Shown in pieces: positions 7,493 to 38,617 of a DNA stretch of 38,826 nt (the first letter of the stretch is position 1; each line of letters starts with the position of its first letter). The translations under genes were made by a program, and so were the position numbers. The stretch comes from Rubrobacter sp. (lineage in GTDB: Bacteria; Actinomycetota; Rubrobacteria; Rubrobacterales; Rubrobacteraceae). Under the pieces are notes generated by a model, which was not told the DNA's origin, ran no database searches, and saw only the letters and a list, made by a program, of their open reading frames with translations. The stretch covers positions 1 through 38,826 of the forward strand of contig JACCWD010000069.1 of the NCBI GenBank assembly GCA_013697825.1. Direction: 5' to 3'.

Positions 7493-7617
7493 GGGAACCT
7501 CCTTCGAGAAAATAGACTATCTCCAATACGCATACAGTCTATGCCCGCCGCCGAGTATGGTCTTTGGCCGAGGGTATAAACATGCGGTTCCCGAAGGGGC
7601 GGGTGTTTGTACATCGA

Positions 7618-7720
7618 GTTCTCGGTTCCCGGTTTTTAGTTATTAGTTTTTAGCTGAGAACCGAGAACTGAAAACTGGGAACCGGGAGCGACCGAAGGCG
7701 AAGCCGAAGGGAGCGACCTA
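7618..7720 (-). repeat. heptad inverted-repeat element E1 (GTTYYYR family) with GGTCGCTCC flank
   Basis: Left GTTCTCG GTTCCCG GTTTTTA GTTATTA GTTTTTA GCT; right GAGAACC GAGAACT GAAAACT GGGAACC GGG; on the minus strand begins at the PucR TAG stop. Confidence 0.75.
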
Positions 7721-9487: not shown

Positions 9488-9546
9488 GTTCTTGGTTTTT
9501 AGTTCTCGGTTCTTGGCTAAGAACTAAAAACCAAGAACTGAGAACC
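9488..9546. repeat. heptad inverted-repeat element E2 (GTTYYYR family)
   Basis: GTTCTTG GTTTTTA GTTCTCG GTTCTTG GCT AAGAACT AAAAACC AAGAACT GAGAACC; 19-bp perfect IR GTTCTTGGTTTTTAGTTCT. Confidence 0.78.
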
Positions 9547-22048: not shown

Positions 22049-22170
22049 GGCGGAGCGACCCGTTAAATCGCGCTTAAATATACGGTTTTTCGTTGCGGTC
22101 TTCGCTTCACGATGTTACGCTCGAACCACGAGATGATTTTTGTTCCGCGAGAACGGACGGATGGACTTCG

Positions 22171-23073
22171 ATGAGCGACGAGGCGTCGCAGACTGTGGAG
22201 CGTTCCCTTTCCGGGGAGCGGAGGATCGTTATCATCACCGGGCTTTCGGGGGCGGGGAAGTCGAATGCTCTGCGGGCTTTCGAGGACGTGGGGTATTTTT
22301 GCATAGACAATCTTCCTCCGCGCATGATCCCCGCCGTCATGGAGACGAGCGGCTCGGGCGGCCCCGAGGACATCGTCGTCGTCATGGATATCCGGGGTCG
22401 GAGGTACTTCGGCGAGGAACTCGAACGGAGCCTCGAAGCCATCGAGGAGGCGGAGGAATGGGAGAAAAGGATACTCTTCATAGACTCCGACGAACCGACG
22501 CTCGTGAGGCGATATAAAGAGAGCCGCCGCCCGCACCCGAACGCGGCGAGTGGCGACGTCCTCGAAGCCATCCGGGCCGAGAGAAGGGATCTCGCGCCGC
22601 TCCGCGAGAGGGCCGACCTCGTCATCGACACCTCGGGATACTCCGCACTCGACGCCCGGCTTCGTTTCAAGAAGCTCGCGGAGTCGTTGTCGAGCCGACT
22701 CACCGTGAGCCTCATCTCCTTCGGTTTCAAGCATGGCTCGCCTTTGGATGTGGACATGCTCCTCGACGCCCGCTTCCTCGAAAATCCCCACTACGACCCC
22801 GAACTCCGCCCCCTCACCGGACACGACGAGCCTGTGAAAAAAGCCGTCCTCGGCCAAAGAGATGCGGAGGAATTCCTCGACAAAACGAGCGACCTCCTCG
22901 CCTTCCTCGTCCCGAGATACGCCGCCGAAGGAAAGACGTACTTCACGCTCGGGGTGGGATGCACGGGCGGGCGCCACCGCTCCGTCGCCATAGTCGAGGA
23001 ACTCGCGAAGCGGATGCGGGAGGGCGGATTGGATCTGGATCTCTTCGTGCGGCATCGGGATCTCGATTCGTAG
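22171..23073 (+). CDS. rapZ: RNase adapter RapZ / YvcJ nucleotide-binding protein
   Basis: IVIITGLSGAGKSNALRAFEDVGYFCIDNLPP; LISFGFKHGSPLDVDMLLDARFLENPHYDPELRPLTG; IGVGCTGGRHRSVAI-like motif. Confidence 0.96.
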   Translation: MSDEASQTVERSLSGERRIVIITGLSGAGKSNALRAFEDVGYFCIDNLPPRMIPAVMETSGSGGPEDIVVVMDIRGRRYFGEELERSLEAIEEAEEWEKRILFIDSDEPTLVRRYKESRRPHPNAASGDVLEAIRAERRDLAPLRERADLVIDTSGYSALDARLRFKKLAESLSSRLTVSLISFGFKHGSPLDVDMLLDARFLENPHYDPELRPLTGHDEPVKKAVLGQRDAEEFLDKTSDLLAFLVPRYAAEGKTYFTLGVGCTGGRHRSVAIVEELAKRMREGGLDLDLFVRHRDLDS

Positions 23074-23249
23074 GCTTCAGGCATGAGGTTTCAGGTGTCA
23101 GGCAAAAGCATTCCGCGAGCGCATGCCGGATACGTGCGCGGGGCGCTCTTGCTTTCGGAGGCGATGTCGCACGGGAGCATGGTACTCTCTACCGAGTTCT
23201 TGCTGAAACCTGAAACCTGATACCTAACAAGCGACCGAAGGGAGCGACA
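23071..23249. repeat. heptad inverted-repeat element E4 (GGTTTCA/GGCATCA family)
   Basis: TAG stop then GGCTTCA GGCATGA GGTTTCA GGTGTCA GGC; right TGAAACC TGAAACC TGATACC, then GCGACCGAAGGGAGCGAC. Confidence 0.72.
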
Positions 23250-26733: not shown

Positions 26734-27741
26734 ATGGTCGTGACTGTACGGATCGGCGTGAACGGGTTTGGCCGGATCGGGATGCTCGTCGTCAAAGCCG
26801 CAATGCAAAGAAACATGGATATCGAGGTCGTGGGCGTCAATGACCTTATGCCGATGGATAGCCTCGCGCTCCTTTTCAAGCGCGACTCCACACACGGTAT
26901 TTGGCCCGAGGACGTGTCTTTCGAGGACAACGTCCTTCGCGTCGGGGATCGCCAGATAAAGACCTTCGCCGAGCGCGACCCGAGCGCCATTCCATGGGGC
27001 GACATCGGCGCGGACATCGTGGTCGAGTCCACGGGCGTCTTCGCAGACCGCGACGGCGCGGCGAAGCATTTGGCGGGGGGCGCGAAGAAGGTCGTCATCT
27101 CGGCCCCGGCGAAGGGCGTGGACGGGACGTTCGTGTACGGCGTGAACCACGAGGACTATGACGCCTCTTCGCACGAGGTCGTCTCGAACGCGAGCTGCAC
27201 GACGAACTGCATCGTCCCGATGGTTAAGGTTCTCCAGGATAGCTTCGGCCTCGAATCGGGCTTCATGACGACGTGCCATGCGTACACGAACGATCAAAGC
27301 CTCCTCGACGCGGCCCACAAGGATCCCCGCCGCGCCCGAGGAGCCGCGACTTCGATAATCCCGACTTCCACGGGGGCGGCGAGGGCGGTCGGCCTCGTCC
27401 TCCCCGAACTCGAAGGGAAGCTCGACGGCATCTCCCTCCGGGTGCCGATCTCCGACGGCTCCATCACCGACCTCGTCGCCCAAATCTCCGCCGAGCCGAG
27501 CGCGGACGAGGTGAACGCCGCTTTCAAGGAGGCGTCCGGCGGCATGAAGGGTGTCCTCGAATACTCCGACGCGCCGCTCGTGTCGGCGGACATCGTTGGG
27601 AATCCGGCCTCGTGCGTCTTCGACTCCGGGCAGACGATGGTGAACGGTCGTTCGGTGAAGATCCTCGGCTGGTACGACAACGAGTGGGGATACTCGAACC
27701 GGACGTGCGACCTCGTCGAGTACATCGGTGGGCAGCTTTAG
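26734..27741 (+). CDS. gap: type I glyceraldehyde-3-phosphate dehydrogenase
   Basis: IGVNGFGRIGMLVVKA; SNASCTTNCIVPMVKVL; WYDNEWGYSNRTCDLVEY. Confidence 0.97.
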   Translation: MVVTVRIGVNGFGRIGMLVVKAAMQRNMDIEVVGVNDLMPMDSLALLFKRDSTHGIWPEDVSFEDNVLRVGDRQIKTFAERDPSAIPWGDIGADIVVESTGVFADRDGAAKHLAGGAKKVVISAPAKGVDGTFVYGVNHEDYDASSHEVVSNASCTTNCIVPMVKVLQDSFGLESGFMTTCHAYTNDQSLLDAAHKDPRRARGAATSIIPTSTGAARAVGLVLPELEGKLDGISLRVPISDGSITDLVAQISAEPSADEVNAAFKEASGGMKGVLEYSDAPLVSADIVGNPASCVFDSGQTMVNGRSVKILGWYDNEWGYSNRTCDLVEYIGGQL

Positions 27742-27880
27742 CGTTTAGCTTTTGGCCGTTAGCTTATTAGCTTATTAGCTGTCAGCTAAAAACGTTCGTA
27801 GCGCAGCCGGGCCGGAATGGCAAAGCCCGGCTGCGCCATATGGCTGGAAAGCTAAACGCTAAAAGCCAACCGCTGAAAGC
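27739..27880. repeat. heptad inverted-repeat element E6 (AGCTTTT/AGCGTTT family) with a central GC hairpin
   Basis: Begins at the gap TAG stop; AGCGTTT AGCTTTT GGCCGTT AGCTTAT...; right GCTAAAC GCTAAAA GCCAACC GCTGAAA. Confidence 0.72.
27801..27836. terminator. strong stem-loop inside E6
   Basis: GCGCAGCCGGGC ... GCCCGGCTGCGC perfect 12-bp stem. Confidence 0.65.
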
Positions 27881-27901
27881 AAAGAAACCGGAGGTGGCGA
27901 T

Positions 27902-29080
27902 TTGAACAAGAAGAGCGTGAGGGATCTCGACGTGCACGATAAACGTGTCCTCGTCCGCGTGGATTTCAACGTCCCCGTGAAGGACGGTCGCGTGACGGAC
28001 GACACGCGCATAAACCGGGCTTTGCCGACGATACGGTACCTCCTCGAAAGCGGCGCGAAGGTCGCGCTCGTCTCGCACCTCGGTCGCCCGAAGGGGATGC
28101 GGAATTCGGACCTCGAAATGGATCCCGTGGCGAAACGCCTCGAAGACCTCCTCGGTGAACCGGTTCATAAAATAGATGTCGCCGTCGGCGGGGAGGTGGA
28201 TGAAGCCCTCGACAACCTCGAAGAAGGTGTCGTCCTCCTCGAAAACTGCCGCTTTTACGCCGACGAGACGAAGAACGATCCGCTCTTCTCCGACAGCCTC
28301 GCCGCCCCCTTCGACTTCTTCGTGAACGACGCCTTCGGGGCCGCCCACCGCGCCCACGCCACCACCGTCGGCGTCGCGAGCCGCCTCCCGGCGGCGGCGG
28401 GACTTCTCATGGAGAAGGAGATCGACTACCTCGAAAGCGTCCTTTCCGACCCTGTTCGCCCCTTCGTCGCCATCCTCGGCGGCGCGAAGGTCTCGGACAA
28501 GCTCGGCGTCATCGAGAGCCTCCTCGCCACCTCCGACTCCCTCCTCGTCGGGGGCGCGATGTGCTTCACGTTCTTCAAAGCGAAGGGGTATGAGATCGGC
28601 GCGTCCCTCGTCGAGAACGACTATATCGAGGATGCGAACCGCCTCATGGAGGAAGCCGGGGACAAACTTTTCCTCCCCGTGGACGTCGTCGCTGCCGAGG
28701 AAATGGAGGACGATGCCGAGACACGGACGGTGAAGGTGGATGGGATCCCCGCCGGATGGATGGGCCTCGACATCGGCCCGGAGACGGTTTCTCTCTTCGC
28801 GGAGAAAGCCTCCGGCGCGGCGACGATTTTCTGGAACGGCCCGATGGGGGTCTTCGAGATGGACGCCTTCGCGAAGGGAACCGAGGGGGTCGCCCGCGCC
28901 GTCGCCGACAGCGAGGCGACGAGCGTCGTCGGCGGGGGGGACTCCGTCGCCGCGGTGCGGAAGCTCGGCCTCGACTATGAGATGAGCCACATAAGCACGG
29001 GCGGTGGAGCCTCCCTCGAGTACGTCGAAGGGAAAGAGCTCCCCGGAGTCGCCGTGCTCCCCGACAAGGAGGACTCGTAA
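27902..29080 (+). CDS. pgk: phosphoglycerate kinase
   Basis: KRVLVRVDFNVPVKDGRVTDDTRI; LVSHLGRPKG; VVGGGDSVAAVRK; TTG start after ggaggtggcga. Confidence 0.97.
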   Translation: MNKKSVRDLDVHDKRVLVRVDFNVPVKDGRVTDDTRINRALPTIRYLLESGAKVALVSHLGRPKGMRNSDLEMDPVAKRLEDLLGEPVHKIDVAVGGEVDEALDNLEEGVVLLENCRFYADETKNDPLFSDSLAAPFDFFVNDAFGAAHRAHATTVGVASRLPAAAGLLMEKEIDYLESVLSDPVRPFVAILGGAKVSDKLGVIESLLATSDSLLVGGAMCFTFFKAKGYEIGASLVENDYIEDANRLMEEAGDKLFLPVDVVAAEEMEDDAETRTVKVDGIPAGWMGLDIGPETVSLFAEKASGAATIFWNGPMGVFEMDAFAKGTEGVARAVADSEATSVVGGGDSVAAVRKLGLDYEMSHISTGGGASLEYVEGKELPGVAVLPDKEDS

Positions 29081-33204: not shown

Positions 33205-33218
33205 CGCTTCGGGAGTCG
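33205..33218 (+). repeat. copy of dispersed motif CGCTTCGGGAGTCG in a GC-rich intergenic stretch
   Basis: Same 14-mer at 37468-37481 and inverted at 37591-37604. Confidence 0.6.
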
Positions 33219-33326
33219 GAGAGCCTTCGACTTCCTTTCCTCCGACAAATCCTCTTCGCGTCCGGCGGACTCCTTCGCCGGGTTCGACCGGCGGCGTATG
33301 CTTCGCTCCCGGCGGCTTATGTTAAG

Positions 33327-34211
33327 GTGCTTCGGGTGGGATGGAAGCTGATCACAGTCGCCGTAGCCGCCCTCGGGGCGATCATCGCCCTCGCCCGCCG
33401 CAAAGACGAGCGGCGGACTCGGAATCGGAGATGGCCGACGAACCTCGCCCACCGGGGAGCCTCGGCCCGCGCCCCGGAAAACACGATGGAGGCATTCCGG
33501 CTCGGCCTCGAAAGCGGCGCCCTCGGCCTCGAAATGGACGCCCATCTCACCCGCGACGGAGAGGTCGTCGTCATCCACGACGACGACGTGGATCGCACGA
33601 CCGACGGGATGGGCTTCGTGCGGGACATGACCCTCGACGAAATTCGCGCCCTCGACGCCGGACATGATTTCTCGCCGGACGGGGAGAGCTTCCCGTACCG
33701 GGGGAAGGGGCTTCGCGTTCCGACTTTGCGCGAGGTTTACGAAAGTTTCCCGGAGGCGATGATAAACGTCGAACTCAAAGAGGATCAAAGCGGGATACAA
33801 GAAAAGGTTCTCGACCTCATCGAGGAGTTCGACGCGGAGCGAAGGACGCTCGTCGCGTCTTTCGGGTACTCCATCGTCCGTCGGTTTAGGAGGGTGTCGG
33901 GCGGGCGGGTTCCGACGTCGGCGTCGCGGGTGGAGATCTCCGTCTTCTATTTTGCGAGCCGGTTGTTTTTGGAGAAGTTCGTTCCGGTGGGCTACGACGC
34001 TTTGCAAGTTCCCACCCGGCATCGCGGCTTCGAGGTCGTGACGCCGCGATTCATAAAGGCGGCTCATTCGCGGGGGGTTCGGGTGGACGTGTGGACGATC
34101 AACGACGCGGCGGAGATGCGCCGCCTCCTCGACCTCGGAGTGGATGTCGTCATGACCGACGAGCCGGAAGTATTGTCGCGGGTTCTCGCGGAACGTGAAG
34201 CTGATTTGTAG
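33327..34211 (+). CDS. glycerophosphodiester phosphodiesterase family protein
   Basis: NLAHRGASARAPENTMEAFRLGLESGALGLEMDAHLTRDGEVVVIHDDDVDRTTDG; VDVWTINDAAEMRRLLDLGVDVVMTDEP. Confidence 0.94.
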   Translation: MLRVGWKLITVAVAALGAIIALARRKDERRTRNRRWPTNLAHRGASARAPENTMEAFRLGLESGALGLEMDAHLTRDGEVVVIHDDDVDRTTDGMGFVRDMTLDEIRALDAGHDFSPDGESFPYRGKGLRVPTLREVYESFPEAMINVELKEDQSGIQEKVLDLIEEFDAERRTLVASFGYSIVRRFRRVSGGRVPTSASRVEISVFYFASRLFLEKFVPVGYDALQVPTRHRGFEVVTPRFIKAAHSRGVRVDVWTINDAAEMRRLLDLGVDVVMTDEPEVLSRVLAEREADL

Positions 34212-34344
34212 GTTTCAGGCATCAGGTTTCAGGCATCAGGAAAATGCTTTGCGGGACGATTTGCTACTCATGAGCTTCGTTCCGCGCCGGGGACGTTCTC
34301 TGTCCGCCGGGGGTTTGCTGAAACCTGATGCCTGACGCCTCTCA
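34209..34344. repeat. heptad inverted-repeat element E5 (GGTTTCA/GGCATCA family)
   Basis: TAG stop then GGTTTCA GGCATCA GGTTTCA GGCATCA; right TGAAACC TGATGCC TGACGCC; 14-bp perfect IR; spans stop codon to convergent stop codon. Confidence 0.78.
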
Positions 34345-34680
34345 ATAAAACGCTATGGCGATGGCGCATATCGCCCCGAACAATGTATATGCGATGCCGA
34401 GCGGGAGATAATATTTGTGGTTGTAGATCGGGGTGAAGAAGAATTTGGCGGCAGGGAAGAGGCCGACGAACTTCTCTACGAGGCGGGAGTATTCGCGGCG
34501 GAAGTATGTGAGGTGCATTCCCCCGGCCATCGTGACGCAGGCGAAGGGGAGCGCCCACAGTTTGGAGGGGTAAAGGCTGATGGCGATGGGGGTGAGAACG
34601 ATGAGGATCGCCCAGAAAGCCTGGATGGAGATGAAGGAGATCCAGGCCGCTCTCCACCGATGTTCGCGACGACGGCTCAT
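34342..34680 (-). CDS. small hypothetical membrane protein
   Basis: 112 aa with about 4 hydrophobic segments; ATG start. Confidence 0.6.
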   Translation of the reverse strand: MSRRREHRWRAAWISFISIQAFWAILIVLTPIAISLYPSKLWALPFACVTMAGGMHLTYFRREYSRLVEKFVGLFPAAKFFFTPIYNHKYYLPLGIAYTLFGAICAIAIAFY

Positions 34681-34805: not shown

Positions 34806-36059
34806 ATGATCAAAGAGTCCATCGTAAAGGATCCGTCGCTCGCGCCCGAGGGCCAGCAAAAGATCGAATGGGCCGCACAACATAGCCCGGTTCTCAACAA
34901 AATCGCCCGCAGCCAACTCGCCGACGGCTCGCTGAAGGGACGCAAAGTCGCCGTGACGGTTCATTTGGAGGCGAAGACGGCGTACCTCGCGGTGCTTCTC
35001 CACGAGGCCGGAGCGGAAGTGACGGTGACGGGGTCGAACCCGCTTTCGACGCAGGATTCGGTTTGCGCCGCCCTCGCCGAGCGGGGCATCCGGGTGTACG
35101 CGACCCACGACCCCTCCGACGAGGACTTCGAGCGGTACATCCACCTCGCTTTGGAGACGGAGCCGGATCTCCTCCTCGACGACGGCGCGGAACTCACCGG
35201 ACGCCTCGCCCAATCCCATCCCGAACTCATAGACAAAGTCGTCGGAGCCACCGAGACGACGACGACGGGAATTCTGAAGCTGAAGGCGATGTCCGGCGAG
35301 GGCGTACTCCCGTTCCCCGTCCTCGGCATAAACGAGGCCCGGATGAAGCACCTCTTCGACAACCGATACGGCACGGGTCATTCCTCCATCGTGAGCTTGC
35401 TTGCGAACACGAACCTCTTCCTCTCCGGACAGCGCGTCGTCGTGATGGGCTTCGGGTGGGTTTCCCGCGGCCTTGCCAAATACGCCGCCGGATTCGGCGC
35501 CCGCGTCATCGTGTGCGAACCCGATCCGGTGAAGCTCCTCGAAGCGCATTCTGAGGGATACGAGGTCATGAACTCCATCGAAGCCGCCGAGGCCGGGGAC
35601 TTCTTCCTGACCGGAACCGGGAACATGAAGGTTCTCCGCCGCGAGCATTTCCAGAAGATGAAGGACGGGGCGGTTCTCGCCAACGCCGGTCATTACGACC
35701 ACGAGTTCGATCTCGCGACATTGAAGGAGATGTCCGTCTCCGAGCGCGAGGCGAGGAAGCACATCACCGAGTACGAGCTTCCGAACGGGCGGAGGATACA
35801 CGTCATCGCGCGTGGTCGGCTTCTCAATTCCGGGGCGGGGGACGGCCATCCCGTCGAGATCATGGACCTCACCTTCGCGCTCCACGCGCTCGGCATACAC
35901 CATCTCGCCTCGAACGCCTCGGACTTCGAGCCGGGCATTCAGGCTTTGCCGGAGGATCTCGATCAGGAAGTCGCCCGCATAAAGCTCCGCACGATGGGCG
36001 TCGAGCCGGAGGAATTGACGGACGAGCAAATGGCGTATCAAACGAGCTGGCGCTCGTAG
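34806..36059 (+). CDS. ahcY: adenosylhomocysteinase (divergent)
   Basis: SNPLSTQDSVCAAL, DDGAEL, TETTTTGILKLKAM, KHLFDNRYGTGHS, VVVMGFGWVSRGLA, NAGHYDHEFD; SD aggagag before ATG 34806. Confidence 0.92.
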   Translation: MIKESIVKDPSLAPEGQQKIEWAAQHSPVLNKIARSQLADGSLKGRKVAVTVHLEAKTAYLAVLLHEAGAEVTVTGSNPLSTQDSVCAALAERGIRVYATHDPSDEDFERYIHLALETEPDLLLDDGAELTGRLAQSHPELIDKVVGATETTTTGILKLKAMSGEGVLPFPVLGINEARMKHLFDNRYGTGHSSIVSLLANTNLFLSGQRVVVMGFGWVSRGLAKYAAGFGARVIVCEPDPVKLLEAHSEGYEVMNSIEAAEAGDFFLTGTGNMKVLRREHFQKMKDGAVLANAGHYDHEFDLATLKEMSVSEREARKHITEYELPNGRRIHVIARGRLLNSGAGDGHPVEIMDLTFALHALGIHHLASNASDFEPGIQALPEDLDQEVARIKLRTMGVEPEELTDEQMAYQTSWRS

Positions 36060-36113
36060 CTTTTAGTTTTTAGCCGTTAGCTTTTGTGGCCCGGACTTTT
36101 TCCCGTCCGGGCC
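36057..36113. repeat. heptad half-element E7 plus hairpin
   Basis: ahcY TAG then CTTTTAG TTTTTAG CCGTTAG CTTTT, then stem GGCCCGGAC/GTCCGGGCC. Confidence 0.6.
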
Positions 36114-36146: not shown

Positions 36147-37028
36147 ATGACTGAGACTTCCGCGGAGATACGCCCGATGAAATCTTCCGATGTCGCTATG
36201 GCTTATGAGTCGGTGGCGATGTCGTTTGCGACGGAGGCGGAGGAGCGCGAGCGTGTCCTCGGACGCTCGGATGAGGAGGTCGAGGAGAGCCACGAGAGGT
36301 ACCGCTCCTTCCTCCGCACCGACCCGGAGGGGGCGTGGGTGGCGAAGGATAAAGGAGCCGTCGTCGGGGTGGCGGTCTCCATCCGGCGCGGTGGTTTGTG
36401 GATTCTCTCGATCTTTGCCGTGGACGAGTCGCAGCGCGGAAAAGGTGTTGGGCGCGAGCTTCTTTCGCGGGCGATGGGGTATGGCGAAGGCTCTTCGGCG
36501 GCCATGATCGCCTCTTCGACCCACCCGGCGGCGATGCGGAGATACGCGCTCGCTGGATTCATCCTCCACCCGACCTTCACCGCCGAAGGCTTCGTCCGGC
36601 GCGAAAGCATCCTCCCGAGCCTCCCCGTCCACGAAGGCGACGAAAGCCACCTCGAAATGGCCGCCGAGGTGGACAAAAAACTTCGGGGTGGAGCGCACGG
36701 CCCCGACATCGATCGCCTCCTCGACACCGGAAACCGCCTCCTCGTCTCCGAGCGCGGCGGTGAGATGGGATACGCCGTCACCAAAGAAGGTTCCACGCAA
36801 ATAGTCGCCGCCACGCACGAGGAGATGGCGCGGGATCTTTTGTGGGCCGCCCTCGCGGACGGGAGGCCCGGTGTCGAGTCCACGGCGAGGTGGATCACCG
36901 CCCGACAAAAGTGGGCCGTGGACATCGCCCTCGAAGCCGGACTGTCGCTGAAACCCGACGGTCCGATATGTATAAAGGGCGAGCCGGGGACATTGTTTCC
37001 GTACCTCCCGAGCGGGTTGTATTTGTGA
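36147..37028 (+). CDS. GNAT family N-acetyltransferase
   Basis: ILSIFAVDESQRGKGVGRELLSRAMGYGE acetyl-CoA-binding motif. Confidence 0.87.
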   Translation: MTETSAEIRPMKSSDVAMAYESVAMSFATEAEERERVLGRSDEEVEESHERYRSFLRTDPEGAWVAKDKGAVVGVAVSIRRGGLWILSIFAVDESQRGKGVGRELLSRAMGYGEGSSAAMIASSTHPAAMRRYALAGFILHPTFTAEGFVRRESILPSLPVHEGDESHLEMAAEVDKKLRGGAHGPDIDRLLDTGNRLLVSERGGEMGYAVTKEGSTQIVAATHEEMARDLLWAALADGRPGVESTARWITARQKWAVDIALEAGLSLKPDGPICIKGEPGTLFPYLPSGLYL

Positions 37029-37132
37029 GGTCGCTTCGCCTTCGGCTCCGCTCCGGTTTCTGGTTTTTAGTTCTCGGTTCTCGGCTAAAAACTAAGAACC
37101 GAGAACCTAGAACTAAAAAGACCGAAGCGACC
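37026..37132 (+). repeat. heptad inverted-repeat element E3 (GTTYYYR family) with outer GGTCGCTTCG inverted repeat
   Basis: TGA stop then GGTCGCTTCG (37029-37038) ... CGAAGCGACC (37123-37132); core GGTTTTT AGTTCTC GGTTCTC GGCT AAAAACT AAGAACC GAGAACC TAGAACT. Confidence 0.78.
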
Positions 37133-37467: not shown

Positions 37468-37604
37468 CGCTTCGGGAGTCGAGTGGTTCTCGACTGTCTT
37501 TCTTCGGACACCCTCGCCTTTCCGCCTGAAGAACTCTCGCCGAACTCGGACGTGCCAATGCCGGTATGGGGTGCCGCCTCGTGCATTTCCCGACTCCCGA
37601 AGCG
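37468..37604. repeat. inverted repeat CGCTTCGGGAGTCG ... CGACTCCCGAAGCG
   Basis: Perfect 14-bp arms 37468-37481 and 37591-37604, about 109-nt spacer. Confidence 0.75.
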
Positions 37605-38086: not shown

Positions 38087-38617
38087 GTGCGGATTATATA
38101 TTTCGGGAGCCGAGCCATTCGCACGCCCCCCGTACGGCGTTCGCCGTGTCCGGATTCTTTACGAAACGGGATATGGCTGGGAGGCGTGGAAGGCACGGCG
38201 CGGCATCCGCGCCGATCCCGTCGCTTCGTTCGAGTCCGGCGTGGGTTTGCCGGGCGGGAGACGAAGGTCTCGGCGAAGGGGAAGCCGGGAGCCACTTCCG
38301 ACTCCCGGTTTTATGGGCGAGACGTGCCATGCCGAGTCCGACGACCGGGTTCCGCGTTCCCCCGCGCGCTCGCAAAGACGCGCCGATGGTGTTTTCCAAA
38401 ACGGAGTTCGTGACCATCGCCGCACCCTCGTAGGGGCGGGTGGTCGACCCGTCCGCTCTCGAACCCGCTCGCACGGGGCCGCTCGGCGTTGCGGGCGGGG
38501 ATGCCCGCGCTCCCGGCTCGGAGATGCTTGATCCACCGCGTCGTCGAAGTCTCCGTCGACGAGGGCGACTCGACCGGGAAGCATTTCCTGAAACCGGATG
38601 CCCGGCGAACCGAAGGA

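What the first reader, a model, noticed from the sequence alone, without database searches (positions are those of the whole stretch)
34209..34344. Family of intergenic elements made of degenerate tandem 7-mers in inverted-repeat architecture
At 7618-7720, 9488-9546, 23071-23249, 27739-27880, 34209-34344, 36057-36113 and 37026-37132 the DNA reads as 3-5 imperfect heptads, then their reverse complements. Heptad sequences differ by family (GTTCTCG/GTTTTTA; GGTTTCA/GGCATCA; AGCTTTT/AGCGTTT), but the 7-bp period and inverted layout are shared. E5 fills exactly the gap between two convergent stop codons. Conserved architecture without conserved sequence suggests a structured terminator/3'-end element or a non-autonomous mobile repeat evolving by heptad exchange. 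I know of heptanucleotide STRR repeats in cyanobacteria, but not this multi-family inverted form.
Basis: partly seen in the sequence, partly recalled or inferred. Interest (0 to 1): 0.85.

Follow-up and report, generated by a model that had tools for sequence, protein, structure and literature searches.

The report
Paired inverted heptad arrays in Rubrobacter
An uncultured Rubrobacter genome is dotted with hundreds of intergenic elements built from two inward-facing rows of 3-5 seven-letter motifs, often starting exactly at a gene's stop codon; such heptad pairs are known from a few other bacteria, but here four motif families share one hidden pattern and replace one another at the same site in a sister species.

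Summary
Period 7 is the only unusual tandem period in this genome's intergenic DNA: 40 arrays against 0.17 expected; neighbouring periods give 0-3. Six of the seven listed places are inverted heptad pairs. 36057-36113 is a single heptad row plus an ordinary GC hairpin. The organism is a Rubrobacter MAG. Neighbouring arrays pair almost only inward (63 pairs against 1 outward and 2 same-strand), with 3-5 heptads per arm. The families share a skeleton, R-G-X-N-N-T-Y, with X = T, G or C. B elements abut upstream stop codons, and their first AG often completes a TAG stop (14 of 22 against 23% of genes). Against a congener, elements at the same sites are conserved with changed heptads, switched in family (B to C), absent, or decayed. 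The two arms of an element do not match each other better than arms of other elements, there is no G-U bias on the transcribed strand, and no T-run follows. A selected RNA stem or terminator is therefore not supported. Best reading: mobile-like extragenic repeats whose arms are arrays of sites read by an unidentified trans-acting DNA-binding factor. Closest precedents: Geobacter metallireducens, Xanthomonas, Nostoc trnL P6b.

The parts
34209..34340 (.). E5: B-family pair; left arm 34210-34240 (AGGTTTC/AGGCATC), 78-nt spacer, right arm 34318-34340; first AG is the end of the TAG stop of the GDPD gene
   Evidence: in the congener G001 only a 38-bp junction with one B-like arm
7617..7684 (.). E1: A-family compact hairpin pair (GTTCTCG/GTTTTTA), followed by a GC-rich repeat up to 7720
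   Evidence: orthologous element in G001 with GGTTATT/GGTTTGT heptads
9488..9546 (.). E2: A-family compact pair, 4-nt centre GGCT
   Evidence: orthologous element in G001 with other heptads
23071..23226 (.). E3: B-family pair after the stop codon of the RapZ-like gene; arms 23073-23102 and 23203-23225
   Evidence: in G001 the same place has degenerate C-type (AGC..) arms
27739..27880 (.). E4: C-family pair (AGCTTTT/AGCGTTT) around a GC-rich hairpin, between gap and pgk
   Evidence: C arms absent in G001, which carries an extra dehydrogenase-like gene here
36057..36085 (+). E6: single C-type heptad row starting at the TAG stop codon of the SAHase gene; followed by a terminator-like GC hairpin 36088-36113
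   Evidence: C-type rows directly after the SAHase stop also in L115 and L116
37052..37119 (.). E7: A-family compact pair inside outer arms GGTCGCTTCG..CGAAGCGACC (37033-37132)
   Evidence: heptads absent at the orthologous place in G001

Best explanation
These are dispersed extragenic elements whose functional parts are two inward-facing arrays of a 7-bp DNA motif, R-G-X-N-N-T-Y (X = T in family A, G in B, C in C). An array of 3-5 motifs is read by a trans-acting, family-specific DNA-binding factor, in the way a transposase or recombinase reads iterated end sites. The factor spreads copies into intergenic DNA, preferring the position just after a stop codon, and copies are later lost or decay. 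Shown here: copy number, inward pairing, heptad number, skeleton constancy with free N positions, exact 7-bp spacing, stop-codon junction, presence/absence and family change between congeners, and one C pair nested in a B pair. Inferred: the existence and nature of the factor, and that it acts on DNA. No candidate enzyme was found.
For: Copy number differs sharply between congeners: the strict B pattern has 105 hits against 7. Orthologous intergenic regions differ by about one element length at L008:9100 (279 against 109 bp, element about 170 bp), and an A element in G001 has a short empty counterpart in the window at 22051. A C-type pair lies inside the B element at L033:9343-9559. Inward pairs number 63 against 1 outward and 2 same-strand, with 3-5 heptads per arm in nearly all. 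Middle heptads not used for detection keep positions 2-3 at 98-100% in G000 A and B while the N positions vary, and adjacent units are nearly always exactly 7 apart. Arms of one element are no more alike than arms of different elements (p 0.23, 0.49, 0.16), so constancy follows the family motif and not the stem. In 14 tandem B elements, 11 lie within 5 nt of the upstream stop against 1.7 expected; genes abutting B elements use TAG 14/22 against 154/683.
Against: No target-site duplication (288 offsets tested, best z 2.1). B spacers are mostly unrelated to each other, unlike the interior of an ordinary MITE; only isolated pairs are similar, such as 70% over 99 bp. No RAYT/Y1 transposase in this 82%-complete genome. 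No autonomous copy: long-range inward pairs enclose only ordinary genes. In the window the empty site for the G001 A element keeps a piece of the outer arm, so deletion is as possible as insertion. Orthologous B elements at L002:7783 and 8844 are older than the species split. Direct evidence for any bound protein is lacking.
Confidence: 0.4

Rival explanations
1. 3'-end RNA hairpins. The paired arms form a stem in the mRNA directly after the stop codon and protect, process or terminate the transcript; any heptad family will do, which is why families replace one another.
For: Hairpins are strong (mean z -5.9 for A and B). Elements sit right after stop codons. A heptad row follows the SAHase stop in several Rubrobacter lineages. 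Family change at an orthologous site keeps the architecture.
Against: No covariation of the two arms beyond family consensus; no excess of G-U over A-C mismatches on the transcribed strand (34 against 40); no T-run (0/20 A); B spacers up to about 180 nt with ordinary folding; some elements lie between divergent genes.
Confidence: 0.25
2. Binding sites of a nucleoid or global regulatory protein (as proposed for the paired arrays of Geobacter metallireducens with IHF/HU), kept by selection at chosen loci and not mobile as such.
For: Paired arrays on opposite strands at variable distance are described there with that reading. Skeleton constancy with free N positions fits protein contacts.
Against: High turnover between congeners at about 81-88% identity; absence from many sister genomes; strong 3'-edge placement is unusual for a regulator.
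Confidence: 0.2
3. Purely mutational origin: slippage by 7 nt and template switching in hairpins create and mirror heptads, with no trans-acting factor or function.
For: Heptanucleotides are reported as the commonest long simple repeat class in most genomes, and a polymerase-slippage cause was proposed (Mrazek 2007, as cited in PMC4679880). Heptad arrays occur in unrelated phyla.
Against: The same few heptads recur at hundreds of unlinked sites in one genome. Mirroring by template switching predicts arms of one element matching best, which is not seen. Slippage alone does not explain inward-only pairing or the stop-codon junction.
Confidence: 0.15

Closest known systems
Paired tandem-repeat arrays of Geobacter metallireducens (classes 1-3; class 3 = five tandem MTYCTGA heptads; also 4x GGACCGG) (PMC2700814)
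   Same: 3-5 short tandem units per array; classes 1 and 2 paired on opposite strands at variable distance and class 3 drawn the same way; several unit families in one genome; class 3 unit fits R-G-N-N-N-T-Y
   Different: Class 1 and 2 units are about 8-mers; read there as IHF/HU sites; stop-codon junction and family switching not described in the text read here
GGGAATC heptads of Xanthomonas (PMC4692102)
   Same: Mostly four units, intergenic, close to the upstream ORF; 70-75 convergent inverted pairs; consensus GGGANTN, which our D heptad GGGAGTC matches
   Different: One family; interpreted through G-quadruplexes, which the A, B and C heptads here cannot form as written
Nostoc trnL intron P6b heptads, classes I and II (PMC4476775)
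   Same: Inverted heptad stem; two motif classes exchange at one orthologous site while the fold stays
   Different: One locus inside a group I intron RNA, not hundreds of intergenic sites
TAACTGA repeats of Beggiatoaceae and cyanobacteria / cyanobacterial STRR (PMC4679880)
   Same: Short intergenic heptad arrays of 2-6 units; motif fits the skeleton on its reverse strand
   Different: Almost all direct (169 direct sets, one indirect); placed before start codons
REP/REPIN elements
   Same: Extragenic palindromic repeats in high copy, often near gene ends (own knowledge)
   Different: No heptad arrays; spread by RAYT transposases, absent here

Membership tests
REP/REPIN (RAYT-mobilised) | RAYT (Y1_Tnp) gene in the genome | tested here: not met
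   PF01797: no match in G000, rings in 5 of 14 control genomes; the genome is 82% complete
REP/REPIN (RAYT-mobilised) | High-copy extragenic imperfect palindrome | tested here: met
MITE | Target-site duplication | tested here: not met
MITE | Conserved interior shared by copies | tested here: not met
   B spacers mostly unrelated; the separate D family does have a shared 130-bp body
MITE | Related autonomous transposon with the same ends | tested here: inconclusive
   none in 0.78 Mb of sample for A, B, C; whole genome not available
Intrinsic terminator | Hairpin followed by T-run | tested here: not met
   0 of 20 A, 0 of 23 B on the + strand, 2 of 23 B on the other
Paired inverted short-tandem-repeat arrays (Geobacter/Xanthomonas type) | Arrays of 3-5 short units, intergenic | tested here: met
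Paired inverted short-tandem-repeat arrays (Geobacter/Xanthomonas type) | Two arrays on opposite strands at variable distance | tested here: met
   63 inward pairs; spacing 3-18 nt (A), 61-257 nt (B)
Paired inverted short-tandem-repeat arrays (Geobacter/Xanthomonas type) | Common descent or common binding protein | not testable with these tools
   no protein is known for either
Known Rfam RNA | Match above gathering score | tested here: not met
   only a tRNA in the window

The most novel reading that the evidence does not exclude
A new, widely distributed kind of mobile or semi-mobile bacterial repeat. A trans-acting factor reads arrays of a 7-bp motif with a fixed R-G...T-Y frame and one family-defining base. 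It installs inward-facing pairs at the 3' edges of genes, often at the stop codon itself, and can convert existing elements to another family. The scattered heptad reports in Geobacter, Xanthomonas, Nostoc and Beggiatoaceae would be members of it.
Probability: 0.15. Interest if true: 0.85.

Novelty: new variant of a known kind. Interest (0 to 1): 0.56.

Why it matters
Heptads are reported as the commonest long simple repeats in most prokaryotic genomes (Mrazek 2007, as cited in PMC4679880), and nobody knows why 7 bp. This genome pair gives hundreds of copies, four families with one frame, and orthologous sites where family, presence and decay can be compared. That makes the question testable: slippage, RNA stem or recognised DNA array. 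The evidence here already argues against a selected RNA stem.

Tried and rejected
(1) Chance periodicity: rejected. (2) Arm-to-arm copying or compensatory stem evolution: no signal. (3) RNA-strand selection through G-U tolerance: no signal. (4) Structured B spacers: same as control intergenic DNA. (5) RAYT and autonomous copies: none found. (6) Target-site duplications: none. (7) E4 as the scar of a lost gene: rejected, since two outgroup loci also lack the extra gene, so G001 probably gained it. (8) R-G-N-N-N-T-Y as a signature across phyla: not shown; in 20 genomes of other lineages 93 matches against 67 for the reversed control, and five of seven published heptads fit against 22% of random ones, a small post-hoc set. 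Gene calls are from my own simple codon model.

Full report
What was checked. The seven places were read directly and tested against tandem and inverted repeat finders. A test of self-match at each lag showed that lag 7, with its multiple 14, is the only excess outside multiples of three: 47 arrays at the threshold in 426 kb of unbiased sample, against 2 in a first-order Markov randomisation. In predicted intergenic DNA alone there are 40 arrays, against a mean of 0.17 and a maximum of 2 in 30 dinucleotide shuffles; coding DNA has 3. The motif AGGTTTCAGGCATCAGG with up to one mismatch occurs 100 times in the 3.2-Mb assembly and never in reversed form.

Organism. Close loci are Rubrobacter (Actinomycetota). 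The congener G001 is Rubrobacter sp. MGR_bin253: its contig C131 has the same length, 41440, as the JACDAJ01 record of L111. It is collinear with the window at about 81-88% nucleotide identity.

Anatomy. Family A (RGTTNTY) is a compact pair with mostly a 4-nt centre in G000. Family B (RGGYWTC) brackets 61-257 nt. Family C (AGCNNTY) is mixed. Arms have 3-5 heptads in nearly all cases. Neighbouring arrays within 260 bp are inward 63 times, outward once and same-strand twice. When only the outer two of three heptads are used for detection, the middle heptad keeps G at position 2 and the family base at position 3 in 98-100% of cases for G000 A and B, while positions 4-5 (B, C) or 5 (A) vary; unit spacing is almost always exactly 7. 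A fourth family, D (GGGAGTC), forms the inverted ends of an ordinary dispersed repeat with a homologous body of about 130 bp, 40 copies in 0.78 Mb. About half of the A ends carry outer arms such as GGTCGCTTCG.

Position. Paired B elements lie at a median of 1 nt from a stop codon on the gene-end side, ten of 28 exactly at -2, and at a median of 59 nt from a start codon. In tandem gene pairs 12 of 14 are nearer the stop (p 0.006); 11 lie within 5 nt against 1.7 expected from uniform placement; genes ending within 10 nt of a B element use TAG in 14 of 22 cases against 154 of 683 overall. The first AG of the array often is the end of the TAG codon, as in E5, E3 and E6.

Comparison with the congener. 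E1, E2 and L004:17216 are present in both with changed heptads (GTTYTTR in G000; GGTTATT, GGTTTGT and similar in G001). L003:6185 is family B in G000 and family C in G001 at the same junction; E3 is B in G000 with degenerate C-type arms in G001. E5 is reduced to a 38-bp junction, and E7's heptads are absent. Further directed searches show size differences matching element absence at L008:9100 and decayed B arms with unalignable spacers at L002:7783 and L002:8844. In deeper Rubrobacter loci a C row follows the SAHase stop in L115 and L116 but not in L112-L114. E4 lies in the gap-pgk intergenic region; G001 has an extra gene there that two other Rubrobacter loci lack. B was found only in Rubrobacteraceae among 399 Actinomycetota genomes sampled, C in 26 of 40 Rubrobacteraceae genomes, A in two of 40.

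Mechanism. If the stem were the selected thing, the two arms of one element should match each other better than arms drawn from other elements. They do not, and mismatches show no G-U preference on the transcribed strand. The elements lack T-runs and B spacers fold like other intergenic DNA. The simplest remaining constraint is on the motif itself, array by array. Together with copy-number change, presence/absence, nesting of a C pair in a B pair and family change, this suggests arrays read by a family-specific trans-acting factor. That the factor also moves the elements is an inference: no enzyme, no autonomous copy and no target duplication were found.

Comparison with known systems. Geobacter metallireducens was reported in 2009 to hold arrays of 3-5 units, classes 1 and 2 paired on opposite strands at variable distance. 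Xanthomonas has GGGAATC arrays with 70-75 inward pairs, close to the upstream ORF. The Nostoc trnL intron exchanges two heptad classes in one stem. So the architecture is a known kind; what appears new is several families in one frame, the stop-codon junction and orthologous family switching. Heptad arrays, some in inward pairs, were also seen in a Thermoanaerobacteraceae MAG and in Roizmanbacteria.

Limits. Both genomes are fragmented MAGs, sampled and not complete. Gene ends come from a home-made codon model. The family-switch sample is small (two sites). The skeleton was noticed after looking at the families.

Noticed in passing
33209-33310 (+), 37472-37600 (+), 38179-38307 (-): Three copies of the D-type dispersed repeat (ends CGGGAGTCGGGA, homologous body of about 130 bp), about 40 copies in 0.78 Mb of this genome; the body's variation looks three-periodic in places, as if derived from coding DNA.
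   Followed up: partly
G001:C131 about 27885-28817: The congener has an extra D-isomer 2-hydroxyacid dehydrogenase-like ORF between gap and pgk, absent from the window and from two other Rubrobacter loci.
   Followed up: partly
L122 1050-1161, L123 1691-1802, L118 14368-14418: Inverted heptad arrays also in Roizmanbacteria and a Thermoanaerobacteraceae MAG; the one in L123 lies just before the SAHase start.
   Followed up: partly
37033-37132 and many A elements: Outer GC-rich inverted motif GGTCGCTTCG / CGAAGCGACC around about half of A-element ends; 39 copies against 6 of the reversed control in the sample.
   Followed up: partly
34342-34680 (-): Conserved small membrane-like protein of 112 aa without a Pfam match, next to the GDPD gene in several Rubrobacter genomes.
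   Followed up: no
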